64,000 nt of DNA from a virus. The position numbers and the translations under genes were made by a program. The stretch is taken from the IMG/VR virus record IMGVR_UViG_3300035698_029335, positions 1-64,000 of that record. One strand, 5' to 3'. Within the stretch, counting starts at the first letter, position 1. Every line of letters begins with the position of its first letter. The notes under the pieces are model-generated. The model saw only the letters and a program-made list of their open reading frames with translations. It was not told where the DNA came from and ran no database searches. This document shows, piece by piece, positions 7,001 to 48,652 of this stretch.

Positions 7001-8887
7001 TCAAAAACATATATTAGTGAATACTTTTCGTAACTTAGAGACATATTCTTCTGGGTCTGGCGGCATCAATGAGATTAGCCGCTTTGATTCATAGAAAGTC
7101 GGTCTATTCCACATCGGAAAATAAGATGGATGGGTAAAGACATATGTTTCATACCTATCACCTGACACGCATTCTCCCACTCTACAATTTGAAGTATTGG
7201 CTGCTACATTATCTTGATTATATCCCGACCAAGTCTGACCTATTTCATCCGTCATTAAAATGATGTATGGATACGCATCATCTCTCCAACTAATAGCCAA
7301 TGGATTCATCAGCGAAGCCAAGTCATGCATAACATCATAGCTTGGCTCTAATGCTGGATAATCGCATACAATAGAGCTGAGAACAGCTATGAATTGTGTC
7401 ACGCTGACCAAATCAGTAATGACTGCATAAGGCTGATCAGGCGTGACAATATTAACTTCAGCTGGAAATATAACCAAACCAAAGTTGTGTTCGAGTGCCT
7501 GAAACTCTGCCACATATGTGCCCAACCCAATTGCTATTGCGGCAATGTATTCACACATTGATTCTGACCCGTCTATTGCGAAGATTATATCTACCTTGTC
7601 GTGTATGTCCAAATCTTCATCAATTTCACCATCACAATCATTGTCTTTTCCGTCGCAAACTTCTTCTTCTGGTCCAATCGCCCCTATACATTGACTCCAC
7701 TCTCCTGCTATACACGTATTTGCCCCCATTCTGCACTCACCTATGATTGCATATGCAGAGCCTGTGTCTCCGCACGAGCCACTAAAGTTGTCAACCTCCC
7801 CGTCACAATCATCATCATAGTTGTTGCATTCTTCTGTACTATTACTCAGATAATAACAAATGCCCCATTCACCATTGATATCGCATTCTTTCGTACCAAC
7901 ACCGCAACCCAAATACTCTCCAGTAAGTCTATCGACGGTATCGCTAGCACAAAGCGTAAATGTGCCTGGTACACACAGACAATCTTCGTCTATATCTCCA
8001 TCACAATCATTATCGAGCCCGTCACATACTTCTATGGATGGTTGTGGTGCGCTGCAGCTGCCCCATGCTCCTCTTGAGCACGTCTCAACACCGTTTCCGC
8101 ATATTGTCGAACAAGCACGTGCTAAATCATCATCTATTCGCCCGTTGCAATCATTGTCCCTATCATCACATAGCTCTGGTGTTGCAATAACCTGCTCAAA
8201 GCAATATAATTCTCCATTAAAACAATGATACACACCTTGTCGGCACATACCGATCTCTCGGCTGTCACCACAAGCCATACCCTCTATGTCAACGTCATCG
8301 TCTACTTCACCATTGCAATTATTATCCCTTCCGTCACACAATTCGGCTGACCATGGTGCTTGAAGAGGGTCGTTGTCATCACAATCATTGCATGCTGGAT
8401 AACCATCATTGTCAGCGTCTGTAGTTTCATCCAACGGCACAATGCCATCACAATTATTATCAATACCATCACACTCTTCAGGTGCACCTGGGTTTATGTT
8501 CGGATCATTGTCGTCACAATCATTCTGGCATACCGTAAAGCCATCTCTATCGTTGTCATAACCTTCATCTATATAAGAATCGCAATTGTTGTCTCTGCCA
8601 TCACATAGCTCTTCACTTGGCAGTACGTAGCCGAAACAATATACTTCAAAATCTTCCGTACAGCGCGTTGTACCGGTCCTGCACTCGCCGGTAGTATCCA
8701 CTACCCTCAGTTTATCTCCAGTTATAACTAAATTATCGACAACGTAACAAGCTTCGGTTTGTGGACACGTTCTATGTAATTTTTGGTCACACTCACAGCC
8801 ACTTAAAATATATAACAGCAAGAGTGGTAAACACAGGCTTGCTTTAATCTGTTTTGTTTTCAACGTAACCCCCATAAAAAATGCCAT
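7001..8887 (-). CDS. Lipoprotein with MopE-type repeats and a C-terminal VWA domain
   Basis: The N-terminus has a hydrophobic signal and lipobox ILSG-C (cysteine at about residue 31). Seven copies of the C-D-G-x-D-N-(N/D)-C-D-G-x-(I/V)-D-E motif follow, plus two calcium-type DNDxDG...DCDDNDP units. These are the repeats known as putative metal-binding motif of MopE-like proteins. From about residue 435 a von Willebrand A domain begins, with a complete MIDAS start (DGSES) and later TDE. The protein should be secreted and metal-bound. Such architectures are typical of secreted proteins of myxobacteria and relatives, so it was probably taken from the host. It may act in host-surface modification or as a virion adhesin. 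It has its own promoter at 8917-8945. Confidence 0.8.
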   Translation of the reverse strand: MAFFMGVTLKTKQIKASLCLPLLLLYILSGCECDQKLHRTCPQTEACYVVDNLVITGDKLRVVDTTGECRTGTTRCTEDFEVYCFGYVLPSEELCDGRDNNCDSYIDEGYDNDRDGFTVCQNDCDDNDPNINPGAPEECDGIDNNCDGIVPLDETTDADNDGYPACNDCDDNDPLQAPWSAELCDGRDNNCNGEVDDDVDIEGMACGDSREIGMCRQGVYHCFNGELYCFEQVIATPELCDDRDNDCNGRIDDDLARACSTICGNGVETCSRGAWGSCSAPQPSIEVCDGLDNDCDGDIDEDCLCVPGTFTLCASDTVDRLTGEYLGCGVGTKECDINGEWGICYYLSNSTEECNNYDDDCDGEVDNFSGSCGDTGSAYAIIGECRMGANTCIAGEWSQCIGAIGPEEEVCDGKDNDCDGEIDEDLDIHDKVDIIFAIDGSESMCEYIAAIAIGLGTYVAEFQALEHNFGLVIFPAEVNIVTPDQPYAVITDLVSVTQFIAVLSSIVCDYPALEPSYDVMHDLASLMNPLAISWRDDAYPYIILMTDEIGQTWSGYNQDNVAANTSNCRVGECVSGDRYETYVFTHPSYFPMWNRPTFYESKRLISLMPPDPEEYVSKLRKVFTNICF

Positions 8888-10620: not shown

Positions 10621-10883
10621 TCTGTTGTGTCGCTAGGAGCTTTCCCTGAAGCTTCAAGCATTGCAGCTGCTTCAGACATCTGTTTATCAATCAGAATCAG
10701 CATCTCTCTGAAGTTTTCTATTATTCCTGGTAGCTCCACTTTACTGCATCTTGATATTTCTTCTCTTGCCACCTTTAGGCAATGCGCCTGCGCACGATGC
10801 ACTGCTTGTACTGCAGCTACATAGACATCATCCTCGTGCAGAGTGAGGCTGCTACGAAAAACCCTCATCTCTTCTATGCTCAT
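10617..10883 (-). CDS. Hypothetical helical protein, 88 aa
   Basis: Almost wholly helical by composition (VAAVQAVHRAQAHCLKVAREEI, ENFREMLILIDKQMSEAAAML). Start overlaps the groEL stop (ATGA), so it is translationally coupled to the chaperonin. No GroES-like sequence is visible in it. Confidence 0.55.
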   Translation of the reverse strand: MSIEEMRVFRSSLTLHEDDVYVAAVQAVHRAQAHCLKVAREEISRCSKVELPGIIENFREMLILIDKQMSEAAAMLEASGKAPSDTTE

Positions 10884-12451
10884 TTTACCTCCAGAACAGC
10901 ATGACTGGTAGTAATCAAAGTGCCAGCTACCGATACTGCGTTTTGCAGAGCAACTCTAGTAACCTTTACTGGGTCAATTATGCCAGCCTGGATCATGTCT
11001 ACAAGCTTACCAGTGGCTACATTATATCCTTTACCATCTCTACTCTTCAATACATCAACAATTGCCAACTCTGCATTACCGCAAGCATTAACAATCATTT
11101 GTCGCAATGGAGCCTCGCAAGCTTTACTGACTATCGATACGCCTAGAGACTGAACATCGTTATCTACTTTCAGCTTCTTCAATACGGAACTAGCACGCAA
11201 TAGAGCGGTGCCACCTCCCGCAACAATTCCTTCTTCTTGCGCCGATCTGACGGCAGAAAGTGCATCTTCAATTCGATGCTTCGTTTCAATCATTTCGACC
11301 TCTGTTGAGCCACCAACATGAATAACTGCTACACCACTAGCTAGCCTAGTTATCCGCTCTTGCAGCTTTTCGCATGTATGAAGGTCGTCGGTATGCGCGA
11401 TTTCGTTTTGCAGACTTTCAATGCGTTGAGATAGCTCCTCATCATCAAATTCACCACCGATAATAGTAGTAGTAAATAGGTTCGCTTCTAGCGTCTCACA
11501 AGTGCCAAAGTCACCAAGTTTTACACCCTTAAGATCGTTGCCTGTCACCTTTGTCATAAAGGTAGCACCAACTGCGCATGCTAAGTCTTCAAGGATGCTT
11601 TGTCTTTCGCTACCGAATGCAGGCGGTTTAATTGCAATGACCTTCAGTGTGCCCTTCACCGAGTTCGTGATAATAGAGGCGAGAGCAGCCTCAGCCACCT
11701 CATCTGCGATGATAACCAGCGGTCTCTTCTCCCTGGCTGCCAACTCAAGAGCAGGCATCATAGAGTCAACCTTAGTGATTTTTTCATCAGTAATAAGAAT
11801 TAACGGCTCACTGTATTTGACACTGCCAGTTCGCTCATTTGTTGCAAGTATCTTTGCTGCTAACCCACTTCTAATAGTGAACCCTTCAAGGAAAGACAAT
11901 TCGGTCTGTAAAGACTTTCCTTCTTTCACCGTAATACTACCATCTTTACCGACTGTATCGATTGCTTCTGCAATCACACTTCCAACAACATTATCATTGT
12001 TTGCTGATATTGTTGCAACATGCCTTAGGTCTTGTAGGGTTCGCACCGGGACTGCTTTTTCTTTTAGAGCCTCAACTAGTGCTGCTAGAGCCTTGTCCAT
12101 ACCACGTTTGAGTTCGATTGGCGGTGCACCTGCTGCTAGGTGTGGTTGAGCGGCAACCAATAACGCTCTTGCGAGAACTGTACTAGTAGTGGTTCCGTCG
12201 CCAACTGTATTGTTCGTTTCTTCTGCTGCCTGCTTGATTATTTGCGCACCTGCATCTTCAAAAGGATCCTCTAGGTCCACAAACCTACTAACAGTAACGC
12301 CATCTTTTGTCACTATAGGTCTCTTTCCTTCTTGCTGCAAAATGACATTTCGTCCGCGAGGACCCATTGTCGCTGCTACATTGTCAGCCAATTTGTTGAC
12401 ACCTGCGAGCGTCTTAGCCGTCAGGAGTTCGTTATCTAAAAATTCTTTCAT
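10880..12451 (-). CDS. groL: Phage-encoded GroEL-type chaperonin
   Basis: Full-length group I chaperonin of 523 residues: start VNKLADNVAATMGPRGRNVIL, the ATP-site motif VGDGTTTSTVLA, apical-domain features, and VAGGGTALLRA near the C-terminus. It ends in HAVLEVK without the usual Gly-Gly-Met tail. It would fold phage or host proteins; some jumbo and marine phages encode such chaperonins, apparently for virion proteins. No groES lies in this window, so it may use a host co-chaperonin or work alone. It has a promoter at 12487-12515. Confidence 0.93.
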   Translation of the reverse strand: MKEFLDNELLTAKTLAGVNKLADNVAATMGPRGRNVILQQEGKRPIVTKDGVTVSRFVDLEDPFEDAGAQIIKQAAEETNNTVGDGTTTSTVLARALLVAAQPHLAAGAPPIELKRGMDKALAALVEALKEKAVPVRTLQDLRHVATISANNDNVVGSVIAEAIDTVGKDGSITVKEGKSLQTELSFLEGFTIRSGLAAKILATNERTGSVKYSEPLILITDEKITKVDSMMPALELAAREKRPLVIIADEVAEAALASIITNSVKGTLKVIAIKPPAFGSERQSILEDLACAVGATFMTKVTGNDLKGVKLGDFGTCETLEANLFTTTIIGGEFDDEELSQRIESLQNEIAHTDDLHTCEKLQERITRLASGVAVIHVGGSTEVEMIETKHRIEDALSAVRSAQEEGIVAGGGTALLRASSVLKKLKVDNDVQSLGVSIVSKACEAPLRQMIVNACGNAELAIVDVLKSRDGKGYNVATGKLVDMIQAGIIDPVKVTRVALQNAVSVAGTLITTSHAVLEVK

Positions 12452-17194: not shown

Positions 17195-18370
17195 TTACCA
17201 CTTTCGATACAATTGTTGCTGAATAGTCCGATGGGTAAGATTATCAAATTCACTTTCCCACATTTCAATTACCGTGTAGCCTTTCTCTTGCAGGGTCTGC
17301 CTTCTCTTTAGCCATTCATTGTATAGTGTTTTGTATTTCTTTTTGGAGATTGGATTTATACCTTCAGGAGGATATTTGCCTGGGTTGCCGTGCCAAAAGT
17401 CACCAAGGAACTCATATACTGTGTTTGTTAATGGATTAAATCCATCAACCCTATATCTACCTATCTTATGCTGCCTTAAGAGTATTGTGTCTTCAGTCAA
17501 TACACCTTTCGTTTCTGTTGTTGCAGCTTCTATTTGATCTAACCAAGCTGCTTCTTTTTTGGAGATTGAATTGCCGCACTTACGACAACCGCTGCCTGCA
17601 AGATGATTGCTAGGTGTCTGCTCAAACGTATTGTGGTTCCTACATGTTATTTTTACTTTTTCTTTATTATTCTTGTATTCGGTCAAACTGTATTCATATT
17701 TATCTCCATGTACCACCTGGGCTCTTTCTATGAACTCCTTAGTTGAGAGTCGTCTAGTATCAGCAACAGTAATAATGCTGCACTTAGGGCAACCATGTCT
17801 TCTCTTGCTAGTATGGTCGCCTGGTGTTTGTAAGAAAGAGCCATGCTGCTTACATACTATTATTATCTTTTCTTTATTACTTCTATACTCAGTCAAACTA
17901 TAATCATATAAGTTACCATGCAACAGTTTTGCTTTTTCTATGAACTCCTTGGTTGAAAGTCGCATACCACATTTAAAGCAGCCGTTGCCGCCATTAGTGT
18001 GGTTGCTTGGTGCTTGCAAGAAAGAGCCGTGCTTTTTACATACTATTTCTACTTTTGTATGAGTGCCTTTGTATTCAGTCGAGCTGTAATCATACTTGTC
18101 ACCATGTGTCGCTCTTGCCTTTTCGATAAACTGCTCGGTTGAAAGTTGCCTGAGGTTGTTAGCTACAACAGCTCCACATTGGGGGCAGCCACTTTTTTTC
18201 GACTTATTGGTGTGATTGCTTGGCGTTTGAAAGAAAGAGCCGTGCTCTCTGCAGACTATCTCGACTCTTGTACGTGTGTTTTTAAATTCAACCAAATTAT
18301 AACTGTATCTTTCTCCATGCACTGCTTGAGCTTTTTCTACGAACTCAATTGTTGTTAATTTTCTTCTCAC
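17195..18370 (-). CDS. Four-repeat DUF723-type protein with Vsr-like endonuclease tail
   Basis: Four tandem repeats of about 65 residues each follow the pattern F-(I/V)-E-(K/R)-A...H-G-x-x-Y-x-Y...V-x-C...H-G-(S/T)-F...S-N-H...G-C-x-x-C-G. Each carries a probable zinc site. The C-terminal 110 residues (RYRVDGFNPLTNTVYEFLGDFWHGNP, and later TVIEMWESEFD) resemble a Vsr/PD-(D/E)xK endonuclease with E-F-x-G-D-x-W-H. The whole looks like a mobile, homing-type endonuclease with DNA-binding repeats. The start is GTG 18370 after GAGGTAAGT; codons further upstream overlap the promoter. A decayed copy lies at 33026-33396. Confidence 0.7.
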   Translation of the reverse strand: MRRKLTTIEFVEKAQAVHGERYSYNLVEFKNTRTRVEIVCREHGSFFQTPSNHTNKSKKSGCPQCGAVVANNLRQLSTEQFIEKARATHGDKYDYSSTEYKGTHTKVEIVCKKHGSFLQAPSNHTNGGNGCFKCGMRLSTKEFIEKAKLLHGNLYDYSLTEYRSNKEKIIIVCKQHGSFLQTPGDHTSKRRHGCPKCSIITVADTRRLSTKEFIERAQVVHGDKYEYSLTEYKNNKEKVKITCRNHNTFEQTPSNHLAGSGCRKCGNSISKKEAAWLDQIEAATTETKGVLTEDTILLRQHKIGRYRVDGFNPLTNTVYEFLGDFWHGNPGKYPPEGINPISKKKYKTLYNEWLKRRQTLQEKGYTVIEMWESEFDNLTHRTIQQQLYRKW

Positions 18371-18386
18371 ACTTACCTCTACAAGC

Positions 18387-18415
18387 ACCATAGGGCACAT
18401 ATTGAATTTTGTCAA
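18387..18415 (-). promoter_or_regulatory. Sigma70-like promoter of the repeat endonuclease gene
   Basis: TTGACA, 17-base spacer, TATGGT on the minus strand, 16 bases before the GTG start. No GATC box. Confidence 0.55.
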
Positions 18416-23059: not shown

Positions 23060-24055
23060 TTATCCCAATAATTTAAGGTTGTGTCTTATGGAGCGCGTAC
23101 TAAAGCCCCACTGTTCATCATAATCTAGCTTTGCCATGTATGGTCTATTCATGTGCACAACATCCTTCTTCTTATCATAGCCCCAACACTTGATCCTCGT
23201 GACTGTGTTTGTTTCATCGATAGTTTCCAAGATGGCGTAATCTTTTCCTTTTGCCGTTTTCTTTAGAACAATAGCCTTAGGGATAAACCAAGTTAATTCC
23301 ATTACTGGATCATATTCAGCTATCGGAGGTACCTTATATGCTTCCAGACGTTCCCTCACTGCATCACTCAGTACCATAGCTATAGGATATATACCAGTTA
23401 ACTGAATAAGGTTCAGTATCCTCTCTTCTCTCGAAAAGTCGCCTTCAGGAGCGTACAATTTAATGTTGGCTTCCAGCTGGTCTTTGTTTCTTGGTCGATC
23501 GACTGCGACACACGACCAAAAATGCTTAGCCCCAGTGAACCTTTCATCAACTAGCTGCGCTAGCGCACCTGAACGGCACAATACATCTAAGTTGCCTTTG
23601 TTTAGTTTTCCGTATGAAACTCTTTCGTGGAAAAGCAACTCCTCAACGCTATTAAATGGTCGGTAATTAACTATCTCTTTAATCGCCGCATCACCAACAC
23701 CCTTTATAGAGCTGAGTGGTTGAATTAGTGTTTTGCTATCTTCTTCAGCAATTTCCCACTTTGAACCAGAGGCATTAATATCAAGACCTCTAATTTTATA
23801 ACCAAGACTCTTAATGATGTTGTTCGCTTCTTCTTTCTTTGCTTCGCCTTGAGCATCCAAATAAGCAGCCAGCCACTCTGATGGGTGATAAGTCATCAAC
23901 CAAGCACACTGATAAGAAACCATTGAATATGAAACGGCATGGCTATTCGAGGTCAATGTACCGTCAGTCAAATAAAATTGATGATCTTCGTGCTCTACCT
24001 CTAAGTCATAAGTGTCTATCTCGCCCATTTCTTCACAAGAAATTATCATCGCCAT
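23060..24055 (-). CDS. dnaE: DnaE C-terminal part preceded by split intein C-half
   Basis: The first 37 residues are an intein C-terminal half: EIDTYDLEVEHEDHQFYLTD, then GTLTSN, with splicing expected before Ser38. The C-extein (about 294 residues) begins SHAVSYSMVSYQCAWLMTYH and continues as the tau-binding and helix-hairpin-helix part of bacterial DNA polymerase III alpha (LSSIKGVGDAAIKEIV). It joins the N-terminal part at 36157-39036: GYGFNA plus SHAVSY restores the conserved DnaE sequence. Total extein is about 1,155 residues, the usual size. About 12 kb and twenty-odd genes separate the halves. Trans-splicing is inferred from intact motifs. Confidence 0.92.
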   Translation of the reverse strand: MAMIISCEEMGEIDTYDLEVEHEDHQFYLTDGTLTSNSHAVSYSMVSYQCAWLMTYHPSEWLAAYLDAQGEAKKEEANNIIKSLGYKIRGLDINASGSKWEIAEEDSKTLIQPLSSIKGVGDAAIKEIVNYRPFNSVEELLFHERVSYGKLNKGNLDVLCRSGALAQLVDERFTGAKHFWSCVAVDRPRNKDQLEANIKLYAPEGDFSREERILNLIQLTGIYPIAMVLSDAVRERLEAYKVPPIAEYDPVMELTWFIPKAIVLKKTAKGKDYAILETIDETNTVTRIKCWGYDKKKDVVHMNRPYMAKLDYDEQWGFSTRSIRHNLKLLG

Positions 24056-33035: not shown

Positions 33036-33396
33036 AGTCTTCCGTCATATTTATCGAAGTCGCTTTCCCACATCTCCGCCACCGTATATCCTTGTTCTTG
33101 CAGAGCCTTTTTTCTTTTCAGCCACTCGTTGTGTAATGCACCATATTTTTTTTGACAACCGGGTTTGTTCCCTCAGCTAGGTATTTGTCTGGCGAGTGTG
33201 CCGAGCGCACATTGGGCAACCTGCTGCACTACTTATGTGATTGCTAGGTGATTGCATAAAGACTCCGTGTTCTAAGCACACTATCTTTACTTTTGTGCGC
33301 GCCCTTGTAGTCAGTCAAATTATAGTTATAAGTGCCTTTGTGCACTAACCTAGCTCGTTTGATAAACTCATCTGTAGTCATTGTTCTCCTACTCAT
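33026..33396 (-). pseudogene. Decayed DUF723/Vsr-like endonuclease gene
   Basis: Starts in good order (TTDEFIKRARLVHKGTYNYN, one repeat unit) and then shifts frame: HGVFMQSPSNH and GCPMC appear in a second frame, and AEGTNPVVKKKYGALHNEWL, GYTVAEMWESDFD in a third. These match the gene at 17195-18370 (EGINPISKKKYKTLYNEWL, GYTVIEMWESEFD). Three repeats and most of the nuclease core are gone. A relic of the same mobile element. Confidence 0.75.
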
Positions 33397-33623
33397 TCTT
33401 GATCCCACTTCCTGAACATCGAGACCTGATACCAGTCATCATCCTGGGTGGTGTACTTCTGACATGTGACATACTCTCCATTCCATTGGAAGGCTGGAGC
33501 GCCGTCGCCCCATTGTACAGCCATCGCAACGATAAGTTTAAATTCTCCTTTGAGACCAAAGTTCGCCCAACTTTCCCCTGTCAATTGTACAAGATCACCT
33601 ATTTCAATTTCTTGTTCACTCAT
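33393..33623 (-). CDS. GDLV-family small protein
   Basis: 76 residues: EIEIGDLVQLTGESWANFGL, GEFKLIVAMAVQWG, EYVTCQKY. The usual ISKV ending is replaced by WYQVSMFRKWDQE, so the back half has been exchanged or has drifted. Coupled by ATGA to the next gene. Confidence 0.65.
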   Translation of the reverse strand: MSEQEIEIGDLVQLTGESWANFGLKGEFKLIVAMAVQWGDGAPAFQWNGEYVTCQKYTTQDDDWYQVSMFRKWDQE

Positions 33624-33859
33624 GGGATGTATACATTACTTACAATGGTGGCTGAGTAGTCTTCGTAGCCACTTACGTAAGTTTCTTTACAATAAATGCT
33701 CAGGTAGTCGTAGATGTTGCCACTATCATAAGCAATTCTCGGGTGCTTCCCCACACCAATGATAAGTGTCATTGTGTTGTACAACTCTGGAAAGTCACTC
33801 CGCCATGTAAGCCCAGTCAACTGCACAAGATCACCTATTTCGAATTCTTGCTCTTTCAT
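33620..33859 (-). CDS. GDLV-family small protein
   Basis: 79 residues: FEIGDLVQLTGLTWRSDF, MTLIIGVGKHP, YSATIVSNVYIP. Very close to its neighbours at both ends; the junction sequence ATIVSxVYxP stop ATG repeats through the array. Confidence 0.7.
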   Translation of the reverse strand: MKEQEFEIGDLVQLTGLTWRSDFPELYNTMTLIIGVGKHPRIAYDSGNIYDYLSIYCKETYVSGYEDYSATIVSNVYIP

Positions 33860-34050
33860 GGTTTATATACTTTGCTTACAATAGTGGCTGCCCACCTTTC
33901 ATTGACGTAATACAATTCGCCATTGTTAATAAACGCTGGTCCAAACATGTCTGATGTTGTTAATAATACAACGCTATCTTTAAGTTCTCCCCACCAATCT
34001 GCACCAGTTAATCTTACCAAGTCTCCTATTTCAAACTCTTGTTTTTTCAT
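33856..34050 (-). CDS. GDLV-family small protein
   Basis: 64 residues: FEIGDLVRLTGADWWGEL, VVLLTTSDMFGP, WAATIVSKVYKP. Tandem copy coupled at both ends. Function unknown. Confidence 0.7.
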   Translation of the reverse strand: MKKQEFEIGDLVRLTGADWWGELKDSVVLLTTSDMFGPAFINNGELYYVNERWAATIVSKVYKP

Positions 34051-34242
34051 GGTCTACATACCTTACTTACAATAGTGGCTGAGAAGTCGGTTTCGTATTC
34101 ATCATAATAATAAATACTCCAGGTTTGCCGACAGGTCGAGAATGAGCCAACTGGAAATACCGGATCACCTTCAGCGTCATAACCAGTAATTCTGACCAGT
34201 CAGAATTACCAGGTCACCTATTTCAATTTTTTGTTCACTCAT
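34047..34242 (-). pseudogene. Frameshifted GDLV-family gene with inserted palindrome
   Basis: ATG leads into KIEIGDLVILTGQNYWL and stops. The other half continues in a second frame (GYDAEGDPVFPVGSF ... FSATIVSKVCRP) to TGA at 34047. The break coincides with an 11-bp inverted repeat, GTAATTCTGAC-CA-GTCAGAATTAC at 34186-34209, which looks like a local palindromic duplication. Confidence 0.7.
34186..34209. repeat. Perfect 11-bp inverted repeat
   Basis: GTAATTCTGAC and GTCAGAATTAC separated by two bases. It lies exactly where the overlapping family gene loses its frame, so it probably arose by a template-switch event that duplicated the codons in inverted orientation. Confidence 0.8.
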
Positions 34243-34442
34243 GGATTGTATACCTTACTTACAACTGTAACTTCCCATTCCTCGCCAACATAATATTTTT
34301 CACAATCAATAGGATCACAAAAACATGGCTGATAGGAGTTATTGAGTGACGTTATCAATACAGTTTTGTTTTTAACTTCTTCCCACCAAGCATCACCAGT
34401 CAATTGTACAAGATCACCTATTTCAATTTCTTGCTCTTTCAT
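34239..34442 (-). CDS. GDLV-family small protein
   Basis: 67 residues: EIEIGDLVQLTGDAWWEEV, TVLITSLNNS, WEVTVVSKVYNP. First gene of the tandem array that reads down to 33393. Function unknown. Confidence 0.7.
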   Translation of the reverse strand: MKEQEIEIGDLVQLTGDAWWEEVKNKTVLITSLNNSYQPCFCDPIDCEKYYVGEEWEVTVVSKVYNP

Positions 34443-34475
34443 GGTTTATATACTTTGCTTACAATAGTGGCTATA
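34440..34475 (-). pseudogene. 3' scar of a lost GDLV-family gene
   Basis: Between the stop of the 204-residue gene and the next ATG, one frame encodes IATIVSKVYKP and stops at the usual junction. It is the last eleven codons of a family gene whose rest has been deleted. Confidence 0.5.
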
Positions 34476-35140: not shown

Positions 35141-35360
35141 CCTCCATTTCCTCGCACGCCACCAACAAGCGCAGGCAGCGCAGCGCTATGTATTGTGGTC
35201 TCCTGGCTTTTCGAAACTTAACTACAAACCATGCCGATGGTAATACTGGCTTCTCAGTGACTACGCCGACGTCGCTCTGCAAATACCCAAAGAGACTGGT
35301 CGAATATTTGTCATCAGCTATGCATACCAAGTCGCCAACACTAATATCTTCTCGGTTCAT
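35118..35360 (-). CDS. GDLV-family small protein
   Basis: 80 residues: DISVGDLVCIADDK, SDVGVVTEKP, WFVVKFRKAR, LRLLVACEE, with an acidic tail. Its ATG overlaps the TGA of the endonuclease gene. Confidence 0.65.
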   Translation of the reverse strand: MNREDISVGDLVCIADDKYSTSLFGYLQSDVGVVTEKPVLPSAWFVVKFRKARRPQYIALRCLRLLVACEEMEVDSQSDP

Positions 35361-36244
35361 AGTTCACGCTCACGCACTTTACTTGCAAGAGTGGCTGTAT
35401 AATCGATCGCGTATTTGTGGACCCTAATCAATAGAATGTCTTTGGTAGCTACATACTTTTCGAGCATCAGATCTTTCTTTTGTACAACTTCAAGCTGCCC
35501 ATGTATTTCTCTAAAATGATGTGGACCATCAACTTCTATTATCACCTTCATCCTTTTCGCATATATATCTATTTGCTTTCTCGACGTCAAGTTCATATCG
35601 AATAATACACTTTTTATCTGCCTGTTACTCTTAAAATCATATGTCGGAAATCTTTCCTTAATGTACATATACATCCACTTCTCTGGTTTAGACTTATACT
35701 TGTGCATTTGCTTTATACATTTGTTGTAGAAATCTTCTGGATTTTCTTTCCTCCATCGAGCAAGTACTTCAGCTCTCTTGTCTTGCACATCTTGTCTGGC
35801 TGAAGTTTTCATTGCTGTCTTTGAAGCACGTTCTCTAAAATCCTCTCTTTTGTTCAGATTCCCAAGGAGTCTTGAGCGGCGAAGCCTCTCGGCAGGATTA
35901 GCCATTATCGATTTTGTTACAACTTGACCCATCCTAAGTTTTGCCTTCTCGGTCATGGTTTCATACCCCATCTCTTTACATCTGCTATTACTGCAGTTGT
36001 GCTCCTCCTTATAGTGTGGCGACAAATCGGCAGATACAAAGCTGCACAACTCACACGCTATAAGGTCTCCCAATTCTACACCCCTTTCCTTACAAAGCTC
36101 ACAAACGTATCTGTGATTGAAGAAAGCCTTTATACTGTATAGTTCATAATCGCAAGCTACAGCAGTTCCAAACCTCTCTTCGCAATCTCTCTTATTGGCA
36201 GCTTTTCTCCGCATTTTGTCCTGAATTTGTGATCTTTCGTGCAT
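35357..36244 (-). CDS. Vsr-like (EDxHD) homing-type endonuclease
   Basis: C-terminal nuclease: RKQIDIYAKRMKVIIEVDGP, then HHFREIHG and ILLIRVHKY, the E-V-D-G-x-H-H pattern of Vsr-like PD-(D/E)xK enzymes. The front has two CxxC pairs (CELCKERG, CELCSF) and further Cys/His, giving zinc-finger DNA binding. It lies at the 3' end of the DnaE N-terminal gene and overlaps it by 88 bases in another frame. This is the arrangement described for fractured genes with split inteins, where a free-standing endonuclease sits at the break. Confidence 0.75.
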   Translation of the reverse strand: MHERSQIQDKMRRKAANKRDCEERFGTAVACDYELYSIKAFFNHRYVCELCKERGVELGDLIACELCSFVSADLSPHYKEEHNCSNSRCKEMGYETMTEKAKLRMGQVVTKSIMANPAERLRRSRLLGNLNKREDFRERASKTAMKTSARQDVQDKRAEVLARWRKENPEDFYNKCIKQMHKYKSKPEKWMYMYIKERFPTYDFKSNRQIKSVLFDMNLTSRKQIDIYAKRMKVIIEVDGPHHFREIHGQLEVVQKKDLMLEKYVATKDILLIRVHKYAIDYTATLASKVREREL

Positions 36245-39036
36245 CTTATTACTCTCCCGTCACTTAAAGTATACTTATACACTTTTTTGACGCCGTTTTT
36301 ATGTCTCTTTTTGACAGGGAGAAAAATATCCTTTTTCGTCTTTTCAGAGCGCGAACGCACAATATCACCTGGCAGTACGTCAATAATCCTCTTATCACAC
36401 AAAACATCACCACCGTCACTATAAATAGTAACCAGTTCATCAAAGTGCAAGCAAGCGTTGAAACCATAGCCAGCCCATAGCTCGCAGGAATGATACAACT
36501 TTTCTGCATCCATCTTACTAATTCCTTTTTCAATGCAGCCATCAATAAACTTCGGCTTAATCTCAGCCAACACCTTGTCTGCTTTGCCAGTACCCTTCTT
36601 AGTTAATACCTTTCTGAAGATGTTTCCGTCGTTCAGCGAAATACCTTTGCCAAGCTTGTGTGCCAATAATGCGATTTGTTCTTGAAACACAAGGAACCCA
36701 TAAGTATCTTCGGTAACTTCTTTATGTAGTGGATGCAAATACTCAATTGAAGATGGGTCTTTTCTTGCTTCAATATACAACTTATCCACCTTCATACCCA
36801 ATGCAGCTGGTCGAAAGATAGAAGTGACTGCTGAAATATCAGTGATATTGGTAGGCTTTACTTTTGTGCAAAACTTCTGTGCTCCTTCACCTGTAAATTG
36901 AAAGATGCCAGCCCACTTGCCTTGATGGAACACTTCTTCATATACTCTTTGATCGTCCACGTCCAAAACATCTGGGTGTAGATTTTCATCATAATACTTC
37001 CTAACATCCTCAAAAGAAGGTCTCTTGATGCCGCGTGTGCGCTGCAGAATTCTCCTTGTCGCACCATCGATCATCTCTAAAGTAGACAAACCTAAGATGT
37101 CGAACTTAATAAAGCCCATAGGTTCCAAGTGCCTAACATTTTGACCTTCACTCCACGGCGTTTGACGTACACCCTTGCCGCTGATTAGTGGCATGTATTT
37201 GTTTAAGTCTTCTCCAATAACGCAGCCACCAGCATGCTTTGACTGACTACGAATGGAGCCGTAAAGTGCATCAATATACACTTCCACTTGTGGGTGTTTA
37301 ACTAGAAACTTGTTAAGCGTATCACTGTATTTTTTGATTTCCTCAAAAGTAGGCACATATATACCAGTCTTTATGCCATTAGCTTTTTTAGCAGCTGGTG
37401 TTGCCTCTGAAATCATCTTACCGGTCACAACATTGACCTCAGCAAAAGGTATATCATAAAGCTTCGAGATGTCTTTGACTAACGATTTCAGTTGCAAAGT
37501 ATTCCAGTTGGTAATAGGTACCACTCGGTTCTCGCCCCAATCTTCGATAAGCAAATCTTTCAATTCTGATGGATTTGAAACATCATAATCGATATCAGGC
37601 ATATCAACTGCATCCGCACGCAAGAAGCGTTCGAATTGTAGGTTGTATTTTATAGGATCAATCTGCGTAATACCAAGCGCATATGCCACGATGCTACCAG
37701 CTGCAGAGCCTCGCCCAGGAGCAGTTAATTGTACTTTTACAGCCTTATCTGCAATAGCATTCATTGTCAAGAAGTATTTTGCAAAATTAAGCTTAGAGAT
37801 TACCCCTAGTTCGTACTCAATTCTGTTCGTGTATGCGTTAGATATACGATATATCCTTTTCTTGCTTTTGTTCTTAATACTGAAGACCTTTTTCAGTCCT
37901 ATCCCAACCAGCTCTTTTAGTTCTTCATCAGCCGTTTTACCTTCAGGCACAACAAAGTCAGGCAAACGAATTGTTGTGTCTGGCGCAAAATCTTCGATTA
38001 CGTCATGAGCAATACTGTGTGTTAACTCGATGGATTTTAGCACCAAGTCATCATCATATTTAATGTCCAAATCTTTCGTATATTTCTTGTACGCTTCCCA
38101 CATCTGATTGCCGTTTTTAGGATACAATTCATACCCAACTTCTTCAACAGTCGAAGGGATATCTTCGATGGACGCGCCCTTGCCTCCCATCCAGCCCAAC
38201 TTCTTGTATACTAGTCGTGACTGCCATGCTTCGGGGCTAGGGTAGTGGCTGTCAGCTGTAGAGATTAGTTGTACTCCAAACTCCTTAGCCACCTTAATTA
38301 CTAATTGATTAATTTCGTGTTGTTCAGGAATTGCATTCCACTGCAGCTCTGCATACCATCTATCACCAAAAATACCTTGCATCCTTCGTGTAGTTTCGCG
38401 CATTGCCTCTAGGACTGTTTCCTCCCCTTCCTCTCTATGCAACCAATAATCTTGAGCATAAATTCCACCCATACAAGCCGATGTTGCAATAACGCCTTCG
38501 CTGTGCTTCTCCAACAGAGCATAGTCAATGCGAGGGAAGCGATAAAAGTTCTTCTCAGTGTAGGATTGTGAAATAATCTGAAAGAGGTTGTTTAACCCTG
38601 TTTGGTTTTGCGCCAACAGGATCATATGCGCTCTTCTGTTTACTATGTTTTTATTACTTTTTTTAGTTTCTTCTTCATCTTCGATAGTAGCGCCAATAGA
38701 TGAACCTTCATCTTTCTTTTTTCTACCTTTCTTAGTTTTATTTTCTTCCGCAATCCGCTCTTTGTCGAGCTTCCATTGTGTTAGGTCTGGGTGGAAGTAA
38801 GCCTCTACACCATAGATTGCCTTAAACTCTTTACCAGCTTCTTTCATCTTCTTGGTATGCAATACTTGCTCTACTAGACCGTTCATATGCCCATGGTTTG
38901 TGATAGCCATAGCATCTCCTCCGTTTTGATAACAAAAATCAAGATGTTGATCAGTAGGACCAAACCCGTCAAAAATTGAATATCCGTCATGAGCATGCAA
39001 ATTGACATATGGGATTTTAGAAACTGTTCTTTTCAT
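36157..39036 (-). CDS. dnaE: DnaE N-terminal part ending in split intein N-half
   Basis: PolIII alpha from the PHP domain (YVNLHAHDGYSIFDGFG, AITNHGHMNG) through the catalytic palm (MPDIDYDVSN; IKFDILGLSTLEMID). The N-extein ends GYGFNA at about residue 861, just before the conserved SHxxSY. The remaining 98 residues are an intein N-half: CLHFDELVTIYSDGG, CTKDHKFRTKCGEKLPIREI and a short end, closely resembling cyanobacterial split DnaE inteins in the TKDHKF block. Splicing with the C-half at 23060-24055 would give a full polymerase of about 1,155 residues. No proofreading exonuclease insertion in the PHP domain is evident. Confidence 0.92.
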   Translation of the reverse strand: MKRTVSKIPYVNLHAHDGYSIFDGFGPTDQHLDFCYQNGGDAMAITNHGHMNGLVEQVLHTKKMKEAGKEFKAIYGVEAYFHPDLTQWKLDKERIAEENKTKKGRKKKDEGSSIGATIEDEEETKKSNKNIVNRRAHMILLAQNQTGLNNLFQIISQSYTEKNFYRFPRIDYALLEKHSEGVIATSACMGGIYAQDYWLHREEGEETVLEAMRETTRRMQGIFGDRWYAELQWNAIPEQHEINQLVIKVAKEFGVQLISTADSHYPSPEAWQSRLVYKKLGWMGGKGASIEDIPSTVEEVGYELYPKNGNQMWEAYKKYTKDLDIKYDDDLVLKSIELTHSIAHDVIEDFAPDTTIRLPDFVVPEGKTADEELKELVGIGLKKVFSIKNKSKKRIYRISNAYTNRIEYELGVISKLNFAKYFLTMNAIADKAVKVQLTAPGRGSAAGSIVAYALGITQIDPIKYNLQFERFLRADAVDMPDIDYDVSNPSELKDLLIEDWGENRVVPITNWNTLQLKSLVKDISKLYDIPFAEVNVVTGKMISEATPAAKKANGIKTGIYVPTFEEIKKYSDTLNKFLVKHPQVEVYIDALYGSIRSQSKHAGGCVIGEDLNKYMPLISGKGVRQTPWSEGQNVRHLEPMGFIKFDILGLSTLEMIDGATRRILQRTRGIKRPSFEDVRKYYDENLHPDVLDVDDQRVYEEVFHQGKWAGIFQFTGEGAQKFCTKVKPTNITDISAVTSIFRPAALGMKVDKLYIEARKDPSSIEYLHPLHKEVTEDTYGFLVFQEQIALLAHKLGKGISLNDGNIFRKVLTKKGTGKADKVLAEIKPKFIDGCIEKGISKMDAEKLYHSCELWAGYGFNACLHFDELVTIYSDGGDVLCDKRIIDVLPGDIVRSRSEKTKKDIFLPVKKRHKNGVKKVYKYTLSDGRVIRCTKDHKFRTKCGEKLPIREIAKRGLELL

Positions 39037-39788
39037 TCTTCTCTCCAGTGATGATTTAAGATTACCCTATTACAATAGGTTCTACTTAAGTTATATTGTT
39101 TAGCTAGTGCTGTTATTGTAATGTCGCCTTGTGCATGGCGCTGTCGCATCTCTTTAACGATTTCCCATGTTAACTTGTGCCCTCCTTTTGCACACAACCG
39201 TGCTTTTCTAAGGATCGACATTTTTTCTTTAATTTCAACTGAATGGAGTTCCCCGTGCATAGGGTTACCTTTGCCTTGCATTCTCTTACTTTGTTCTGGT
39301 CGTTTCTTGCCTTTGCACCATGACTCCTTACCTTTTAGCGCTTTTGATAACTTTTCTCTTGTCTCGGGCGATTGAGTCTTGCCATACATAGGACTCAGAT
39401 CTCCCCTCATTCCATACATCGGGTTGTTTTCACCGGATACATCAGCATGATTTTCAGACATCCTCTTTCGTGCCTCTTCGGAGTGCTTTCTACCTAATGT
39501 ATTTCCTGCTTTTGGGCAAATATTGATCAGCTGGCAAAATTCATAACTATCAATAACCGCCTACTCGCTCTCTATAAGTAATGCGGTTGTTGCAACTTGT
39601 TGAACTATTTCGAAACATATATCCTCCTCACCAAACTTATTATACACTCTTTGTAAATGTATGTTGCCATGCTTATTGCCCCTTAGCATGCTTAAGTGAT
39701 GAGCTTTACGTTTTGCAAAATTTATAGCGGAGCCTATATAAAACTTATCATAATTTGCAAAACAAATCTTGTATATAACATTGTTCAT
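39033..39788 (-). pseudogene. GIY-YIG/NUMOD3 homing endonuclease gene with an in-frame amber codon
   Basis: The first 75 codons carry a GIY-YIG domain (VIYKICFANYDKFYIGSAIN, KRKAHHL). A TAG at 39561-39563 follows LLIESE. Beyond it the same frame continues unbroken for 176 codons through NICPKAGNTLGRKHS and three NUMOD3-like GxxNPMYG/GKxxSPE units to a C-terminal helix-turn-helix (ITALAKQYNLSRTYCNRVI). A single base change would restore a complete enzyme. An ATG at 39461 might still start the DNA-binding part. It ends in a four-base overlap with the dnaE start. Confidence 0.8.
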
Positions 39789-45743: not shown

Positions 45744-46226
45744 CTATTCCTCTTCCTTATTGTTTTTGTTTTTACTTTTCGTCTTAAAAGCTTCGTACTT
45801 TTCTTTAAGTCGCTCTTTTTGCACTTTCGCGCCATTCCTTTGAATGTCTTCTATTGAGTCGTCTGTTGGCTCAAATACCTTTATGGCAACATTGGAGGTG
45901 TCCATGAAAACTGGACATACAATCCCATCATCTCCGTTCCGGTTCTTAGCTATAAAAATCCTACCGCCATTAACCTGCTTATCAGCAATTGTTCGTGAAA
46001 GAGAGAAGATAAAGTCTGCCACAAAGCACTTATTGAATGCCTCGCTGATCGCCTCCATAGTTACCACTTCTGCATTAAGACCTGAATTATGCGTGTACAC
46101 TCCATTTTCTAGAAAAAACATATGAGTATCATCAACAGTAATGTCTATTGTTTCTTCATCTCCGTACTCTTCTATCGAAGCTATTTCATCTATATTAAAA
46201 TCTGCTATATTAAGTTCATGTTTCAT
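45744..46226 (-). CDS. gp41-type helicase C-terminal part preceded by split intein C-half
   Basis: The first 47 residues are an intein C-half: IADFNIDEIASIEEYGDEET, IDITVDDTHMFFLENGVYTH and N, with Ser48 as the splice acceptor. The C-extein (about 113 residues, SGLNAEVVTMEAISEAFNKC, GRIFIAKNRNGDDG) is the end of a DnaB-family hexameric helicase. It joins the N-part at 47303-48652 through TNR-SG, the site used by known gp41 split inteins. The ATG at 46226 overlaps the stop of the endonuclease gene upstream. Confidence 0.9.
   Translation of the reverse strand: MKHELNIADFNIDEIASIEEYGDEETIDITVDDTHMFFLENGVYTHNSGLNAEVVTMEAISEAFNKCFVADFIFSLSRTIADKQVNGGRIFIAKNRNGDDGIVCPVFMDTSNVAIKVFEPTDDSIEDIQRNGAKVQKERLKEKYEAFKTKSKNKNNKEEE
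46209..46225 (-). repeat. 17-bp direct repeat, 3' copy
   Basis: AAAAAATGAAACATGAA at the junction of the endonuclease stop and the helicase C-half start (approximate limits). The other copy lies at the N-half end. In both places it encodes MKHE. Confidence 0.55.
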
Positions 46227-47299
46227 TTTTTCTCCATGAGATAATGTACGCACTTATCTACTGCTTTTAGTGGGTTTTCATCATATTCTTCTTCAGTGAT
46301 CCTGAGAATTTGATAGCCTTTTTTTCTTAAGATTTTTTCCTTAATCGAGTCTTTCTCTTCTATTCTCGCAAGTGAGTGCCAATAAGTTCCATCAAACTCT
46401 ATCACTTTGTCTTTATATAAAAAATCAACAGAAAACCAAAAACCACCTCCCATATCTTGATATTCTTTAAATTTAAATTTCTTCTCATTTCCAGCTTCTG
46501 CAAACAACACTTCAGACTCTAACAAAGAAGACTCTTTTAGGATACTCCAAAAAAGATTTTGAGATTTTTTGGAATAAGTATTACCTCGGCTACTACGCCT
46601 TGGGCTATCCATACCTTTGATAGATAACTCTGACATATGTTGGCAATATTTTTCCCATTCTACTTCTGATTCTTCGCCATATTTCTCTTCAAACCACTCT
46701 TTTGAAAACCTTTTTCTCTGGTTCTTTCTTCTAGCATCCCACTTCCTGAGCCCCTCTTCTTTGCCATCGCGCTCAACAAACGATTCGAGCGATAATCCAT
46801 TACCCCATCCGCCTTTACTTTTGACACTTTTTGTCCACTTTTCCAAATATTCTTCCCTCTTTTGCTTACCGACCTCATCACCATAACGTCTAATAAAAGA
46901 AGCCTCATCTATACTTGCTTTTGATGCACATAAATCTTCCCAAGCCAGTGTGCCATGGGTTTCGCTATAAACTTCCTTACTGAGTTTTTCTTTAGATGCT
47001 GCTATTTTTTCTTCGCGGAGTCTTTTTCCTTTCACGCCATATCTATTCTCATATGATTCTAAAGAACTGCTATCGTTTTTGAATTTCATTTTTGAGTTTT
47101 CAACTCGTTCACACCAATTTGGCTCAACGTTATGCTCTATCATTCTCAATAACATCGGTGTACAATTGTGAAAAGACCACCCTCGCTCTGTGCACATTTC
47201 ATACACAGCTGCTAACTCTAGTGCTGCAGAGTCTGAAATGTTCACAACTCCTTTGTAACTCTTGAACGACAATATTCTATTTATTATTTCATGTTTCAT
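46223..47299 (-). CDS. Vsr-like homing-type endonuclease in the fractured helicase
   Basis: C-terminal nuclease: FWFSVDFLYKDKVIEFDGTY, then WHSLARIEEKD and GYQILRITEEEYDENP, the same E-F-D-G-x-x-W-H family as at 35357-36244. The front has three motifs with RYG or RDG and K-W, spaced about 50 residues apart, probably DNA-binding. It starts at MKHEIINRI immediately after the helicase N-half stop and ends on the helicase C-half start, so it sits exactly inside a broken intein. The place and type match the fractured-gene systems known from marine metagenomes. Confidence 0.8.
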   Translation of the reverse strand: MKHEIINRILSFKSYKGVVNISDSAALELAAVYEMCTERGWSFHNCTPMLLRMIEHNVEPNWCERVENSKMKFKNDSSSLESYENRYGVKGKRLREEKIAASKEKLSKEVYSETHGTLAWEDLCASKASIDEASFIRRYGDEVGKQKREEYLEKWTKSVKSKGGWGNGLSLESFVERDGKEEGLRKWDARRKNQRKRFSKEWFEEKYGEESEVEWEKYCQHMSELSIKGMDSPRRSSRGNTYSKKSQNLFWSILKESSLLESEVLFAEAGNEKKFKFKEYQDMGGGFWFSVDFLYKDKVIEFDGTYWHSLARIEEKDSIKEKILRKKGYQILRITEEEYDENPLKAVDKCVHYLMEKK

Positions 47300-47326
47300 G
47301 TTTCATGTTTCATGTTTCATTTTTTT
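47292..47326 (-). repeat. Tandem 7-bp repeat at the helicase intein break
   Basis: On the minus strand ATGAAAC occurs three times in a row followed by ATGAAAT, each unit with a potential ATG. The first unit plus the preceding A-run forms the 5' copy of the 17-bp direct repeat. The N-half stops in it (TGA) and the endonuclease starts in it (ATG 47299). Confidence 0.85.
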
Positions 47327-48652
47327 TGTTAATATCCCATCAGACACTTCTAAGCCTTCGTTTATTGACTTTAGTGTGCCATCTGCTGTTGGAAATTGAT
47401 GTCTTGCAGAACAAATCATCGTTTTTCCACTTTTTAATGTAATTTTATAGGTTTTTTGTACTTCTTTAGGAAATACCTTAGTAACATCTTTGAAACCTTT
47501 ATGTGTTTCAACCTGGTCGCCAACTCTTATGTCTCCTATTTTGATACTCCTTGATGCACTACCATCTCTAATAAGTAGTTTAGTAGAGGTTGAAAAGCAT
47601 CTATTTGTTTGGCTCGCAGTCCACAATGGACAAGCAAACTCGCCCGCAAGACCTCTTAATTCCTCATAGATTGACTCCAGCTCATTTCTCTTCTCACGTT
47701 CCATCCTAGTTGGCTTGAGTAGATCGCCATAGTCAACTATAATAAGATTTACTTCGAAGCCTCGCTGAATTACTCTTGTCAAGTGGCTTCTAATCGTCGC
47801 AACACTCGCCGACTTAGTTGGATATTCTTTGATAATCAATTTACCGTTAAGGCTTTTGATTTCTTCAAAGACTTCATCCTTCAGTCCATTGAGGGAGTTT
47901 AAGGGAAATTCAGTAATACACGAATCATATCTTCTGCCAACAACGGTATCTTGCAACTCTAGTGTATAGTGCACCACATTTAAGCCTGCTTTGAGAGCTG
48001 CAGCGCCAATATGCACCAATGCCATACTCTTACCCGCACCTGTTGGAGCGATACACACTCCTAACTCTCCCTTACCGTGTCCACCTTGAATTAGACCATC
48101 AATAACATCCCAACCAGTTGATACTGGGTTTCGAGATTTCACGAGATAGCGTGACTCAAAATGCTTCAGGAAATCGTAACCCTGCTCATTGTCAGAACCT
48201 AATTTCAAGGCTTTGTTGATTATTTCTTGCACTGCGTCAAAAGAACTACTCTCCATCAACTGAACGCTTTCTAACATTGCCGCTTTGAGGGTCTGCTTTT
48301 TGCAAAAATCAATTGACTTTTCCTTAACATACTCTTCATTAACTTCTTTCAGTGCACCAGAGACGATCTTAGCAAAATAATCCCTCACCTGCTTCTGCAC
48401 AGTAGCATTCATGTGCTCTATTTCAGACCTAAGGAGAGATTCTACTGTATTTCTACTAGGATAAGCGCCATACTTATCTCGATAAGAATAGATAAGCTTG
48501 GTGAACTCTTGCAGATACTTTAATTCAAGAAAACTGGTCTTTAATACTTCGCCTACTTGATCTGCAAACATCGTATCGTCCATTATCAGCTGTGCCAGTT
48601 TTTCTTGAAACGGCTTTCCGAACTTCGATAATGAGGCTTCTTCTTCTATCAT
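47303..48652 (-). CDS. gp41/DnaB-type replicative helicase N-part with split intein N-half
   Basis: RecA-fold helicase: Walker A IAPTGAGKSMALVHIG, LNVVHYTLELQDTVVGRRYD, LIIVDYGDLLKPTRM (Walker B) and CPLWTASQTNR. The N-extein (351 residues) is followed by a 98-residue intein N-half: CFSTSTKLLIRDGSASRSIK, VGDQVETHKGFKDVTKVFP, SARHQFPTADGTLKS. With the C-part at 45744-46226 the extein totals about 464 residues, the size of T4 gp41. It unwinds DNA at the fork. Trans-splicing is inferred from intact Cys1, the HxxF block and C-half HN-Ser. Confidence 0.92.
   Translation of the reverse strand: MIEEEASLSKFGKPFQEKLAQLIMDDTMFADQVGEVLKTSFLELKYLQEFTKLIYSYRDKYGAYPSRNTVESLLRSEIEHMNATVQKQVRDYFAKIVSGALKEVNEEYVKEKSIDFCKKQTLKAAMLESVQLMESSSFDAVQEIINKALKLGSDNEQGYDFLKHFESRYLVKSRNPVSTGWDVIDGLIQGGHGKGELGVCIAPTGAGKSMALVHIGAAALKAGLNVVHYTLELQDTVVGRRYDSCITEFPLNSLNGLKDEVFEEIKSLNGKLIIKEYPTKSASVATIRSHLTRVIQRGFEVNLIIVDYGDLLKPTRMEREKRNELESIYEELRGLAGEFACPLWTASQTNRCFSTSTKLLIRDGSASRSIKIGDIRVGDQVETHKGFKDVTKVFPKEVQKTYKITLKSGKTMICSARHQFPTADGTLKSINEGLEVSDGILTKKMKHET

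What the first reader, a model, noticed from the sequence alone, without database searches (positions are those of the whole stretch)
45744..48652. Second fractured gene: gp41-type helicase with split intein and endonuclease at the break
N-part ends in CFSTSTK...; C-part starts with a 47-residue C-half ending HN before Ser; extein junction TNR/SG is the known gp41 site. The intein sequence is close to what I recall for gp41-8 (EIASIE, ETIDI, LFFxNGxxTHN). Two essential replication genes in one phage therefore both depend on protein trans-splicing.
Basis: partly seen in the sequence, partly recalled or inferred. Interest (0 to 1): 0.8.

Follow-up and report, generated by a model that had tools for sequence, protein, structure and literature searches.

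The report
Helicase gene broken by mobile split intein
A virus of bacteria encodes its DNA-unwinding helicase as two separate proteins that are very probably stitched together by a self-removing "split intein", with a DNA-cutting selfish gene sitting in the break; this is a known kind of arrangement, but its relatives show the break at several stages (empty, broken with the selfish gene, broken without it, fused again).

Summary
Confirmed. On the minus strand the helicase N-part plus intein N-half (48652-47303), an intact endonuclease ORF (47299-46223) and intein C-half plus helicase C-part (46226-45744) lie in a row. All splicing residues checked are present (Cys1, block-B His, HN/Ser). The closest relative (L002, about 80%) has the same gene order with an uninterrupted helicase (SQTNR/SGLNAE). 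On the extein tree the window is the only occupied helicase among 76 in its clade, while its nearest complete intein relatives (61-62%) sit in helicases only 36-42% identical: a mobile cassette, not an assembly error. The endonuclease is of the I-Bth0305I (EDxHD/Vsr-like) type. Of 60 distinct loci with this intein, 58 are split at the same point (38 with endonuclease ORF, 9 broken, 11 without) and 2 are fused, 98% identical to a split intein. The layout is that of the 'fractured genes' of Dassa et al. 2009: new member of a known kind. Peculiar to the window are a perfect 17-bp direct repeat around the endonuclease, in the frame of both intein halves, and a heptamer array at the break; their meaning is unproven. 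dnaE is also split here, halves about 12 kb apart, and intact in L002.

The parts
47600..48652 (-). Helicase N-extein, 351 aa, ends SQTNR
   Evidence: DnaB_C Pfam and PHROG 19; 80% to uninterrupted L002 helicase
47303..47599 (-). Intein N-half, 98 aa, with stop
   Evidence: gp41-1 intein 6QAZ E 3e-14; Cys1 and CSARH
47286..47320 (-). Heptamer array (ATGAAAC)x4 ATGAAAT across intein stop and endonuclease start
   Evidence: three exact units in only one other viral contig
47309..47325 (-). Copy 1 of the perfect 17-bp direct repeat AAAAAATGAAACATGAA
46223..47299 (-). Free-standing endonuclease, 358 aa, EDxHD/Vsr-like
   Evidence: DUF559 and MTES_1575; 3R3P I-Bth0305I by profile 3e-7 and by fold, probability 1.00, E 0.13; motif invariant
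46232..46235 (-). GGAG, possible ribosome-binding site of the C-part
   Evidence: sequence; 5 nt before ATG 46226
46215..46231 (-). Copy 2 of the 17-bp direct repeat, at the start of the intein C-half
46086..46226 (-). Intein C-half, 47 aa, ends YTHN
   Evidence: gp41-1 weak match; 60 relatives
45744..46085 (-). Helicase C-extein, 113 aa, starts SGLNAE, with stop
   Evidence: PHROG 19 from profile position 508; contiguous with the N-extein in L002
36157..39036 (-). Second split gene: DnaE N-part with intein N-half after GYGFNA
   Evidence: uninterrupted in L002 and L003
23060..24055 (-). DnaE C-part with intein C-half ending TSN before SHAVSYS
35357..36244 (-). Endonuclease-like ORF overlapping the end of the DnaE N-part
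   Evidence: weak DUF559 and PHROG 559

Best explanation
A mobile split-intein cassette occupies the replicative helicase gene. The helicase is translated as two chains; the basic N-half and acidic C-half of the intein pair, splice themselves out by the class 1 pathway (Cys1, Asn, +1 Ser) and leave a whole helicase joined as SQTNR-SGLNAE. The endonuclease in the break cuts helicase genes that lack the cassette, so that repair copies the whole 1.5-kb unit into them. Shown here: anatomy, intact splicing residues, intein-free allele in the closest relative, incongruence of intein and extein, endonuclease motif and fold, loss and fusion series in relatives. Inferred: splicing, cleavage and homing.
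For: Anatomy; gp41-1 homology; HN/S in 60 of 60 loci; opposite net charges +7 and -12; intein-free allele L002; window sole occupied tip among 76 helicases, sister to L002 at 0.999; nearest complete inteins 61-62% in helicases 36-42% identical; endonuclease is I-Bth0305I-like; loss and fusion series.
Against: No activity data. Occupied loci were collected by intein similarity, which biases the comparison of intein and extein identity. L003, the closest intein relative by its C-half, is truncated and absent from the trees. Endonuclease target not tested.
Confidence: 0.88

Rival explanations
1. The endonuclease is an independent free-standing homing gene that merely settled in an already split intein and moves alone; the intein halves are passengers inherited or moved by general recombination.
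For: It is a separate ORF; in relatives it has its own ATATTTAT box upstream (19 of 25 against 21 of 203 other genes) and is lost while the split intein stays (11 loci).
Against: The whole cassette is absent from 75 related helicases and appears in a foreign clade, so intein and endonuclease seem to travel together.
Confidence: 0.2
2. Decayed element: the halves no longer splice, and the helicase is dead or works as two unspliced chains.
For: The N-half has an extra MKHET tail not seen in most relatives; endonucleases decay in 9 relatives.
Against: All reading frames and splicing residues are intact and both exteins are well conserved.
Confidence: 0.06
3. Assembly chimera of two strains.
For: Single metagenomic contig; the heptamer array is a place where assemblers can err.
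Against: Same layout, split at the same point, in dozens of other contigs.
Confidence: 0.02

Closest known systems
Fractured genes with split inteins and Vsr-like endonucleases (Dassa et al. 2009, NAR 37:2560, gkp095; not held, known from memory and from citations in PMC12350094 and PMC6892783)
   Same: Gene in two ORFs, each with an intein half, and a free-standing EDxHD/Vsr-like endonuclease in the break; gp41-type helicase among the hosts (memory)
   Different: 17-bp in-frame direct repeat and heptamer array at the break; no leader before the endonuclease; a second, dispersed split gene (dnaE) in the same phage
gp41-1 split intein (PDB 6QAZ)
   Same: Homologous fold by sequence, N-half E 3e-14
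   Different: Insertion site about 3 residues away (memory); C-half only weakly similar
gp41-8 split intein (Carvajal-Vallejos et al. 2012, cited in PMC11766414)
   Same: Cys1 and +1 Ser, halves of 94 and 50 aa (PMC11766414); same insertion site (memory)
   Different: Sequence could not be compared
I-Bth0305I homing endonuclease (PDB 3R3P)
   Same: Catalytic domain by profile and fold
   Different: Window protein is in a split intein, with helical YG..G...W repeats in front; I-Bth0305I comes from an intron (3R3P is named 'mobile intron protein')
Shigella phage ESh36 gene 41 region (ON528746.1)
   Same: Helicase in two CDS with intein-like halves and an endonuclease-like ORF between
   Different: Insertion site further downstream (MSDIAE/SAGLP); long extension before the C-half; record marked UNVERIFIED

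Membership tests
Class 1 split intein | Cys/Ser at position 1, block-B His, terminal HN, nucleophile at +1 | tested here: met
   C1, CSARH, THN, Ser+1
Class 1 split intein | Halves on separate chains that complement each other | tested here: met
   Separate ORFs; opposite net charges. Sequence only
Class 1 split intein | Splicing activity in trans | not testable with these tools
   Needs expression
Fractured gene | Host gene interrupted by split intein, uninterrupted in relatives | tested here: met
   L002 and about 75 other helicases
Fractured gene | Free-standing endonuclease ORF between the intein halves | tested here: met
   46223-47299
EDxHD/Vsr-like homing endonuclease | Catalytic domain related to I-Bth0305I with conserved acidic and His residues | tested here: met
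EDxHD/Vsr-like homing endonuclease | Cuts the unoccupied allele | not testable with these tools
   Needs enzyme assay
gp41-8 intein | Close sequence identity and same insertion site | not tested
   gp41-8 sequence not at hand; site agreement from memory only; no held paper gave its exteins

The most novel reading that the evidence does not exclude
The fracture is switchable: the perfect 17-bp direct repeat around the endonuclease lies in the reading frame of both intein halves, so one natural recombination between the copies would drop the endonuclease and leave a contiguous in-frame intein (...LTKK-MKHE-LNIADF...). The frame-rotating heptamer array, which stops every frame and offers start codons, would affect how the endonuclease is translated. 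Phage populations would then hold split and fused forms together.
Probability: 0.12. Interest if true: 0.65.

Novelty: new member of a known kind. Interest (0 to 1): 0.45.

Why it matters
How inteins become split, and whether they can go back, is mostly argued from distant comparisons. The relatives found here give near-isogenic pairs: L216 (split, endonuclease intact) against L242/L243 (fused by one 1.3-kb deletion), and L228 against L222/L225 (endonuclease lost, still split). With L002 as the intein-free allele, the gain, homing and re-fusion of split inteins become testable. The window also adds a natural pair of co-resident split inteins (helicase and DnaE) that must not cross-react.

Tried and rejected
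Heptamer array as a recurrent feature of fractured genes: rejected, three exact units occur in only one other viral contig, and other split loci mostly share only 8-11-nt words across the gap (one A+T-only 16-mer in L209). Target-site duplication as origin of the 17-bp repeat: weakened, because other N-halves mostly end ...KK with no MKHE; the MKHET tail may follow from heptamer growth or one added A (inference). Intron instead of intein: no Rfam match in the window. Same intein in bacterial genomes: none found. C-half in annotated phages: none. Dassa 2009 could not be read. The second structure job was not used, because a fused intein would be a changed sequence.

Full report
Anatomy. On the minus strand the window carries helicase N-extein (48652-47600), intein N-half (47599-47303), endonuclease (47299-46223), intein C-half (46226-46086) and helicase C-extein (46085-45744), followed by a class II ribonucleotide reductase gene. 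The C-part starts at ATG 46226, which overlaps the endonuclease stop as ATGA and has GGAG 5 nt upstream; the GTG of the listed ORF is not needed. The endonuclease ATG has no Shine-Dalgarno and lies 3 nt after the N-part stop, so it is probably translated by reinitiation (inference).

Intein. The N-half matches solved gp41-1 (6QAZ, E 3e-14), the C-half weakly (0.003). Cys1, block-B CSARH, THN and Ser+1 are present; all 60 distinct loci keep HN/S. Net charge is +7 for the N-half and -12 for the C-half, and opposite signs hold in 78 of 79 loci, as expected for halves that find each other.

Intein-free alleles and mobility. L002 has the same neighbours and an uninterrupted helicase reading CSQTNRSGLNAE. 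In an extein tree the window is the sole occupied tip among 76, sister to L002 with support 0.999. Its nearest complete intein relatives (61-62%) sit in helicases 36-42% identical, whereas its helicase relatives at 67-82% have none. The cassette therefore probably entered this lineage from elsewhere. Caveats: occupied loci were collected by intein similarity; L003 (C-half 74%, endonuclease 53-55%, helicase C-part 59%) is truncated and not in the tree.

Endonuclease. 27 of 28 family members hit DUF559 and 26 MTES_1575. The family profile finds 3R3P, the I-Bth0305I catalytic domain, at 3e-7; the AlphaFold model (mean pLDDT 86.5, pTM 0.40) finds it first in the PDB at probability 1.00 but E 0.13. 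VDF, IEFDG, WH and a following D are invariant or nearly so. Upstream of the nuclease lie YG..G...W repeats, presumably DNA-binding.

States of the cassette. Of 60 distinct loci, 38 are split with an endonuclease ORF of at least 290 aa (window included), 9 split with a broken one, 11 split with less than 110 nt left, and 2 contiguous. L242 and L243 are fused; L242's intein is 94-98% identical to split L212-L216, and L242 aligns with L216 at 93-95% on both sides of a 1.3-kb deletion that removes the endonuclease. As they nest among split members, the fusion is probably derived. L228 against L222/L225 shows endonuclease loss with the split kept. These counts are not population frequencies.

What is peculiar to the window. 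A perfect 17-bp direct repeat flanks the endonuclease; none of 2000 dinucleotide shuffles of the two junctions reaches 17, the largest being 15. It lies in the frame of both intein halves, so loss of the stretch between the copies would read LTKKMKHELNIADF. Copy 1 is part of a heptamer array (ATGAAAC)x4 ATGAAAT. In relatives this place holds a 24-73-nt leader, with an ATATTTAT box upstream of 19 of 25 endonuclease genes against 21 of 203 other genes; the window lacks it. Start-codon context (ATGAAA) and A-runs explain part of the repeat, so its significance is less than the shuffles suggest.

Second split gene. The DnaE N-part (36157-39036) ends after GYGFNA with an intein N-half; its C-part (23060-24055) begins with a C-half ending TSN before SHAVSYS, about 12 kb away. 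In L002 and L003 dnaE is one open frame of 1181 and 1159 aa. The penultimate Ser in place of His is unusual. That both genes are essential is not shown; a compact PolA-type polymerase is also present.

Verdict. The new value lies in the relatives (near-isogenic pairs; a similar layout in the deposited phage ESh36) and in the untested repeat at the break.

Noticed in passing
L248 3986-6966 (Shigella phage ESh36, ON528746.1): Gene 41 helicase of a deposited T4-like phage is annotated as two CDS with a hypothetical, endonuclease-like protein between; intein-like halves at a different site. The record is marked UNVERIFIED.
   Followed up: partly
L172 2060-6435 and about 20 other loci: Helicases interrupted at two sites: the P-loop and the window's site. 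In L172 both interruptions are split inteins, so the helicase comes as three chains.
   Followed up: partly
L242 5987-5998 against L216 4732-6031: Natural near-isogenic pair: fused mini-intein and split intein with endonuclease, differing by one 1.3-kb deletion.
   Followed up: yes
leaders between intein N-half stop and endonuclease ATG in L164-L241: Conserved ATATTTAT box, possibly a promoter of the endonuclease gene; enriched over other genes.
   Followed up: partly
window 36157-39036 and 23060-24055: dnaE split by another intein, halves about 12 kb apart; C-half has TSN instead of the usual HN end.
   Followed up: partly
window 33389-34472: Five diverged tandem copies of a short gene (EFEIGDLVQLTG...) with a shared upstream stretch.
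   Followed up: no
window 10880-12451: Phage-encoded GroEL chaperonin (PHROG 5725).
   Followed up: no
window 17195-18415 and 39033-39461: Further endonuclease-like genes: DUF723/DUF4379/CapR-type protein, and a NUMOD3 protein next to the DnaE N-part.
   Followed up: no
window 7001-8887: Protein with six MopE-type putative metal-binding repeats (PF11617).
   Followed up: no
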